In this document: in pieces, positions 13,283 to 63,512 of the stretch
Layout of the letters: each line of letters opens with the position of its first letter
How positions within the stretch are numbered: the stretch's first letter is position 1
NCBI GenBank assembly: GCA_963971285.1
Contig: OZ020244.1
Span: 32,178,001-32,242,000 of the forward strand
DNA from: Astropecten irregularis
Taxonomy: Eukaryota > Echinodermata > Asteroidea > Paxillosida > Astropectinidae
DNA: 64,000 nucleotides
Direction of reading: 5' to 3'
Made by a program: the position numbers and the translations under genes
The notes under the pieces: model-generated
What the model was told of the DNA's origin: nothing
The model's database searches: none
What the model saw: the letters and a program-made list of their open reading frames with translations, nothing else

Positions 13283-63512
<50,230 letters not shown>

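What the first reader, a model, noticed from the sequence alone, without database searches (positions are those of the whole stretch)
57788..57808. Candidate 21-nt microexon in the PKC V3 hinge
Between exons 9 and 10 lies a 21-nt block with a strong pyrimidine tract and CAG acceptor and a consensus GTAAGT donor. It has the 2-2 phase needed for in-frame inclusion and adds seven residues just before the hinge tyrosine Tyr337 and right after an acidic run. In mammals the PKC delta V3 hinge is alternatively spliced with small insertions that affect caspase cleavage. A similar regulatory switch here, independently placed, would be new. Chance occurrence of such signals in a 4.7-kb intron remains possible.
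Basis: partly seen in the sequence, partly recalled or inferred. Interest (0 to 1): 0.7.

Follow-up and report, generated by a model that had tools for sequence, protein, structure and literature searches.

The report
Possible tiny exon in PKC gene
A 21-base stretch inside an intron of what is probably an echinoderm protein kinase C gene is bounded by splice-like signals and could add seven amino acids to the enzyme's hinge, but look-alikes arise often by chance, so it is more likely a decoy than a real exon, and only RNA data or related genomes can settle it.

Summary
In detail: 57788-57808 is a 21-nt block between a good acceptor and a GTAAGT donor, phase 2-2, open, adding VVLGKAA to the hinge of a PKC delta/theta-type kinase. 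Only the donor's intronic half is consensus: 5.6 bits, against 11.9 at exon 10. In simulated introns of the same length, 3-24% of trials hold a pair at least as good, depending on model and criterion. The same gene holds a second in-phase pair, 24 nt, that scores higher and would interrupt the kinase domain, so looks like a decoy. The genome holds 248 look-alikes; bases -1 and -2 of their donors give little or no sign that many are real exons. For the exon: a 103-nt AG-free zone upstream (reached by 2 of 292 strong acceptors, this one included), a branch-point-like TACTCAC, and TGCATG 33 nt past the exon; these were noticed after looking, and 6 of 31 comparable pairs also have TGCATG within 100 nt. 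No RNA and no related genome was available. I put a real microexon at about 0.15 and a chance pair at about 0.78. The caspase analogy is not supported.

The parts
55639..55718 (+). Exon 9 of the PKC gene, encodes [27 protein letters not shown] (last codon split)
   Evidence: donor GATGA|GTAAGT 5.1 bits
57683..57785 (+). 103-nt zone without AG upstream of the candidate acceptor
   Evidence: 63 of 16,924 AGs and 2 of 292 acceptors of 8 bits or more reach 103 nt (candidate included)
57754..57760 (+). Branch-point-like TACTCAC, A at 57759, 28 nt before the candidate exon; another yUnAy match (TTAAC) has its A at 57733
   Evidence: pattern yUnAy, four matches in 57701-57788
57768..57787 (+). Polypyrimidine tract with TCTCTCT and CAG acceptor
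   Evidence: 9.3 bits
57788..57808 (+). Candidate 21-nt microexon, adds VVLGKAA
   Evidence: surroundings 57640-57900 match once in the genome
57809..57814 (+). GTAAGT donor; the exonic side GC is off consensus
   Evidence: 5.6 bits
57841..57846 (+). TGCATG, the RBFOX-type hexamer (motif name recalled; named UGCAUG in search terms)
   Evidence: chance about 6% per 100 nt
60462..60594 (+). Exon 10, starts with the base that completes the split codon, then AIYEPLW..., reaches the glycine loop GKGSFGK

Best explanation
The 21-nt block is most likely a pseudo-exon: a chance pairing of a good acceptor-like site and a middling donor-like site in a long, repeat-bearing intron, normally removed with the rest of the 4,743-nt intron and at most included as rare splicing noise. 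Shown: the sites exist, the frame is open, pairs this good arise at a sizeable rate, and another such pair lies in the same gene where inclusion makes little sense. Inferred: that this one is not used.
For: Simulated introns hold an equal or better pair in 3-24% of 300 trials per model. 31 pairs with an equal summed score in some open phase in 308,000 strand-bases of this genome, candidate included. In six introns with known phase (12,981 nt) there are two in-phase pairs, and the other (63878-63901) scores higher and would insert FLGNTDYR before FYAAEI in the kinase domain. Genome-wide 248 look-alikes against about 218 predicted from the reversed-pattern control corrected for hexamer frequency. 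Among look-alikes A at -2 is 12 of 71, below background 25-26% and far below the roughly 60% of real exons (recalled); AG before GT in 2 of the 100 listed. The candidate has C at -1 and G at -2.
Against: AG-free zone of 103 nt, reached by 2 of 292 strong acceptors; TACTCAC 28 nt upstream and TGCATG 33 nt downstream; G at -1 in 71 of 248 look-alikes (29%) is above the 19-25% before GTAAC, GTAAA and GTAAT, though equal to the 29% before GTAAG; lengths divisible by three in 44 of the 100 listed, repeat copies included.
Confidence: 0.78

Rival explanations
1. A real, alternatively included microexon. The acceptor is defined by U2AF and the branch point TACTCAC or TTAAC; a PTB-like protein on the UCUC tract would repress it and an RBFOX protein on UGCAUG would promote inclusion, perhaps in nerve or muscle. 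Inclusion puts VVLGKAA between the acidic run and the hinge tyrosine, moves the acidic residues seven positions away, brings a lysine to -5 and lengthens the hinge by seven residues, which should weaken phosphorylation by acid-preferring tyrosine kinases. The anatomy is shown; use, regulators and effect are inferred.
For: Phase 2-2, open frame; acceptor in the range of the gene's real exons; 103-nt AG-free zone; TCTCTC and TGCATG, each 4-6% per 100 nt by chance. RBFOX binding in the 3' flank and PTBP1 at the pyrimidine tract mark alternatively spliced micro-exons in mammals (PMC4317164, abstract and sections 7 and 9).
Against: Chance rate; poor exonic half of the donor; TGCATG within 100 nt also in 6 of 31 comparable pairs, some sharing a site or alike in sequence; look-alikes with TGCATG show no length preference (8, 6, 6 modulo three); features noticed after looking; no RNA, no relatives.
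Confidence: 0.15
2. The acceptor is real but belongs to an alternative last exon: reading on past 57808 gives EVVLGKAA and then TAA, and with an intronic poly(A) site it would make a truncated PKC of regulatory domains only.
For: TAA follows directly in frame; one AATAAA at 59052.
Against: The AATAAA is 1.26 kb downstream and this hexamer occurs 55 times on the + strand of the window.
Confidence: 0.03
3. The block is a remnant of a partial duplication of the end of exon 10 (glycine loop VLGKG plus its donor).
For: VVLGKA resembles KVLGKG; TTAGGAAAG against TTCGGAAAG, and the same GTAAGTAC follows.
Against: The local alignment score is reached by 8.6% of 2,000 base shuffles with the donor bases and 30% without them.
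Confidence: 0.02

Closest known systems
Mammalian PKC delta hinge splice variants (mouse PKCdeltaII, human PKCdeltaVIII)
   Same: In-frame insertion into the hinge of a delta/theta-type PKC.
   Different: There 78 bp inside the DILD caspase-3 motif (PMC8248728, passages), or a downstream 5' splice site of exon 10 (PMC3901959, passages). Here a 21-nt cassette after the acidic run, and exon 9 extension is closed by TAA. Whether the intron is the same one was not tested.
RBFOX/PTBP1-regulated micro-exons of mammals
   Same: At most 51 nt, pyrimidine-rich tract with TCTCTCT upstream, TGCATG in the 3' flank, long flanking introns, weak donor (PMC4317164; here).
   Different: No evidence of inclusion, of binding, or of conservation here.
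eMIC (Srrm3/4)-dependent neural microexons
   Same: Long AG-free zone, UCUC-rich tract, weak own donor (listed for Drosophila in PMC8797185, passages).
   Different: No UGC in the 30 nt before the acceptor; the upstream donor is not strong (5.1 bits).

Membership tests
Alternatively spliced microexon | 3-51 nt, in frame, bounded by AG and GT | tested here: met
Alternatively spliced microexon | Included in mature mRNA | not testable with these tools
   no RNA data held
Alternatively spliced microexon | Sequence conserved in relatives | not testable with these tools
   the genome has no relatives here
Alternatively spliced microexon | Splice signals beyond chance | tested here: inconclusive
   3-24% of simulated introns; AG-free zone rare
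eMIC-dependent microexon | UGC motif close to the 3' splice site | tested here: not met
   none in the 30 nt upstream
eMIC-dependent microexon | Genome encodes an eMIC domain (PF15230, link recalled) | tested here: inconclusive
   no match, but none of the 14 control genomes rang either
RBFOX-regulated microexon | UGCAUG in the downstream intron | tested here: met
   57841-57846; binding not testable
PKC delta caspase-site splice variant | Insert interrupts the caspase motif | tested here: not met
   DDEDE stays whole in both readings
Novel PKC of delta/theta type | Kinase domain closest to theta/delta | tested here: met
   88-aa piece: PKC theta 132.7 bits, eta 123.9, beta 108.9; no delta kinase named among the 60 rows shown of 245, so delta and theta are not separated

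The most novel reading that the evidence does not exclude
A genuine lineage-specific microexon, repressed by a PTB-like and promoted by an RBFOX protein, that swaps the acidic surroundings of the PKC hinge tyrosine for a neutral, lysine-bearing linker and so makes a tissue-specific PKC that is less easily tyrosine-phosphorylated: the same hinge that mammals alter by splicing, altered by a different splicing route.
Probability: 0.13. Interest if true: 0.5.

Novelty: not a real feature. Interest (0 to 1): 0.22.

Why it matters
If real, it would show that the PKC delta/theta hinge was made switchable by splicing more than once and by different means, pointing to the surroundings of the hinge tyrosine and the linker length as the regulated property. 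If not, it is a useful caution: in-frame microexon look-alikes of this quality turned up twice in 13 kb of introns of one gene.

Tried and rejected
Repeat origin: 57640-57900 matches the genome once, at itself; the same intron does hold inverted repeats, among them pairs at 55772-56416 and 57131-57611. Structured RNA: nine weak matches in 55700-60700, none reaching its family's gathering score. Exon 10 duplication: not significant. Mammal-style extension of exon 9: closed by TAA. eMIC domain search: uninformative. Literature: seen as listings with titles and abstract starts; none of the titles or abstract starts shown describes an echinoderm PKC microexon. That library holds open-licence papers only. 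I did not search the prokaryote, phage, plasmid and viral-contig collections, as I expected no animal relative there. The first whole-genome pattern search was too general and served only for the GTAAGT count and the genome size.

Weaknesses of my own numbers: the splice matrices are human-like frequencies recalled from memory, not trained on this species; the AG-free zone and TGCATG were noticed after looking; the patterns were fitted to the candidate; the length count covers the 100 listed of 248 and includes repeat copies; the length range is in effect 4-34 and not 3-33, so 71 of 248 is approximate, and the 71 hold 65 distinct starts; the 31 pairs include at least one that is part of real exon 11 (62626-62631).

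Full report
Setting. The window lies in a genome of 475,729,200 bases in 168 contigs. A mitochondrial COX1 on contig C168 (16,335 bases) reads with the residues usual for this protein (for example STNHKDIG, recalled) under table 9, where AAA is N and ATA is I, and not under tables 2, 5 or 13, so the animal is most likely an echinoderm (inference). The gene is a novel PKC of delta/theta type: an 88-residue piece of its kinase domain is closest to PKC theta among solved structures, and six exons from C1B into the kinase domain read continuously.

The observation. Exon 9 (55639-55718) ends ...GATGATGAAGATGA|GTAAGT, exon 10 starts at 60462, and the 4,743-nt intron between them is of phase 2. At 57788-57808 lies AGTTGTATTAGGAAAGGCAGC, preceded by TTTTTCTCTCTGTCTGTCAG and followed by GTAAGTAC. 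Inclusion changes DDEDE-AIYEPL into DDEDE-VVLGKAA-AIYEPL without a stop.

Is it more than chance? With human-like matrices recalled from memory, the acceptor (9.3 bits) ranks second of 245 AGs in the intron; five donors score higher and three tie. In 300 simulated introns per model, at least one open, phase-matching pair of 3-51 nt with both sites as good occurred in 3.3% (order 1), 3.7% (order 2) and 6.7% (order 3 from the whole window); with an equal summed score in 23.7%, 15.7% and 23.3%. In 308,000 strand-bases of real sequence (the window and nine fetched stretches, both strands) 31 pairs reach the summed score in some open phase, this one included and at least one part of real exon 11. 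In the six introns whose phases I know, 12,981 nt in all, there are two in-phase pairs: this one, and 63878-63901 between exons 12 and 13, which scores higher (10.6 and 5.6 bits) and would insert FLGNTDYR ahead of FYAAEI, in what I take from knowledge of the kinase fold to be helix alpha-E. That second pair is very probably a decoy and shows what chance yields in this gene.

Genome-wide yardstick. The pattern Y6-B6-CAG, 3-33 nt, GTAAGT occurs 248 times on both strands (130 and 118), against 388 for the same pattern read backwards. The backward hexamer is itself 1.78 times as common as GTAAGT, so chance predicts about 218 and the excess is small. If many look-alikes were real, their donors should show the exonic consensus AG|GT. 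G at -1 is found in 71 of about 248, or 29%; before GTAAC, GTAAA and GTAAT it is 19-25%, and before GTAAG 29%. A at -2 is found in 12 of those 71, below the 25-26% background before GGT, GGTA and GGTAA and far below the roughly 60% of real exons (recalled). In the 100 listed matches AG precedes GT twice. Against this, 44 of the 100 have a length divisible by three and 28 and 28 do not, but repeat copies and coding sequence are included. Taken together few look-alikes are real exons, and the candidate, with C at -1 and G at -2, belongs to the less promising part of the class. With TGCATG ahead within 30 nt of the donor hexamer and a looser acceptor there are 20 sites in the genome, the control giving 16; their lengths modulo three are 8, 6, 6.

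What speaks for it. Upstream of the acceptor there is no AG for 103 nt. Of 16,924 AGs 63 reach that, of 292 acceptors of 8 bits or more only 2, candidate included, and the six other exons checked have 25-60 nt. Within the zone are CATTAAC and TACTCAC, the latter with its A 28 nt before the exon. The tract contains TCTCTCT, and TGCATG stands at 57841; TCTCTC and TGCATG have a chance of about 4% and 6% per 100 nt, but TGCATG within 100 nt is also found in 6 of the 31 comparable pairs and a UCUC tract in 6 of 31. Pyrimidine motifs upstream with PTBP1 repression, and RBFOX binding in the 3' flank, mark alternatively spliced micro-exons in mammals (PMC4317164, abstract and sections 7 and 9 read). 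Long AG exclusion zones, UCUC tracts and weak own donors are described for eMIC-dependent exons in Drosophila together with UGC motifs (PMC8797185, passages), which are absent here. I noticed these features on looking at the site, so I discount them. The surroundings are single copy.

Weighing. Starting from a small fraction of real exons in the class, lowered for the poor exonic donor half and raised for the length, the AG-free zone and TGCATG after discount, I reach about 0.15 for a used microexon. This is a judgement, not a computed probability.

Function, if real. Mammalian PKC delta variants have 78 bp inserted in the DILD motif and are then not cleaved by caspase-3 (PMC8248728, passages), or use a downstream 5' splice site of exon 10 (PMC3901959, passages). 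Here the exon 9 extension is closed by TAA, and the cassette would leave DDEDE untouched, so a caspase switch of that kind is unlikely. What changes is the surroundings of the tyrosine: the acidic residues just before AIY move seven positions away and a lysine arrives at -5. Kinases of the Syk and Src type prefer acidic residues there (recalled), so inclusion should weaken phosphorylation of this tyrosine. That is inference.

Conclusion. I file it as probably a chance splice-site pair, with a live minority case for a microexon.

Noticed in passing
63878-63901: A second in-phase microexon look-alike (24 nt, acceptor 10.6 bits, donor 5.6 bits, FLGNTDYR) between exons 12 and 13 of the same gene; used here as a probable decoy.
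   Followed up: partly
55772-56416 and 57131-57611: Inverted-repeat elements in the same intron: one pair of 21-nt arms 100% complementary 603 nt apart, and several arms with the word TTTCATAGAGCTGCT; they look like small DNA transposons (inference).
   Followed up: no
60036-60230: A strong inverted repeat (66-nt arms, 82% complementary) that gives a weak miRNA-family match (MIR2630, 42 bits against a gathering score of 144).
   Followed up: no
51710-51880, 52300-52360 and 56900-57050: A repeat with a tRNA-like GATTCGAACC stretch, seen by eye, in this intron and an upstream one.
   Followed up: no
L019 (G000:C131:32162-33484) and L021 (G000:C25:9951047-9952018): C131 has a COX1 without TGA codons, perhaps a bacterial contig in the assembly; C25 has a partial COX1 with 7 TGA, perhaps a nuclear copy of mitochondrial DNA.
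   Followed up: no
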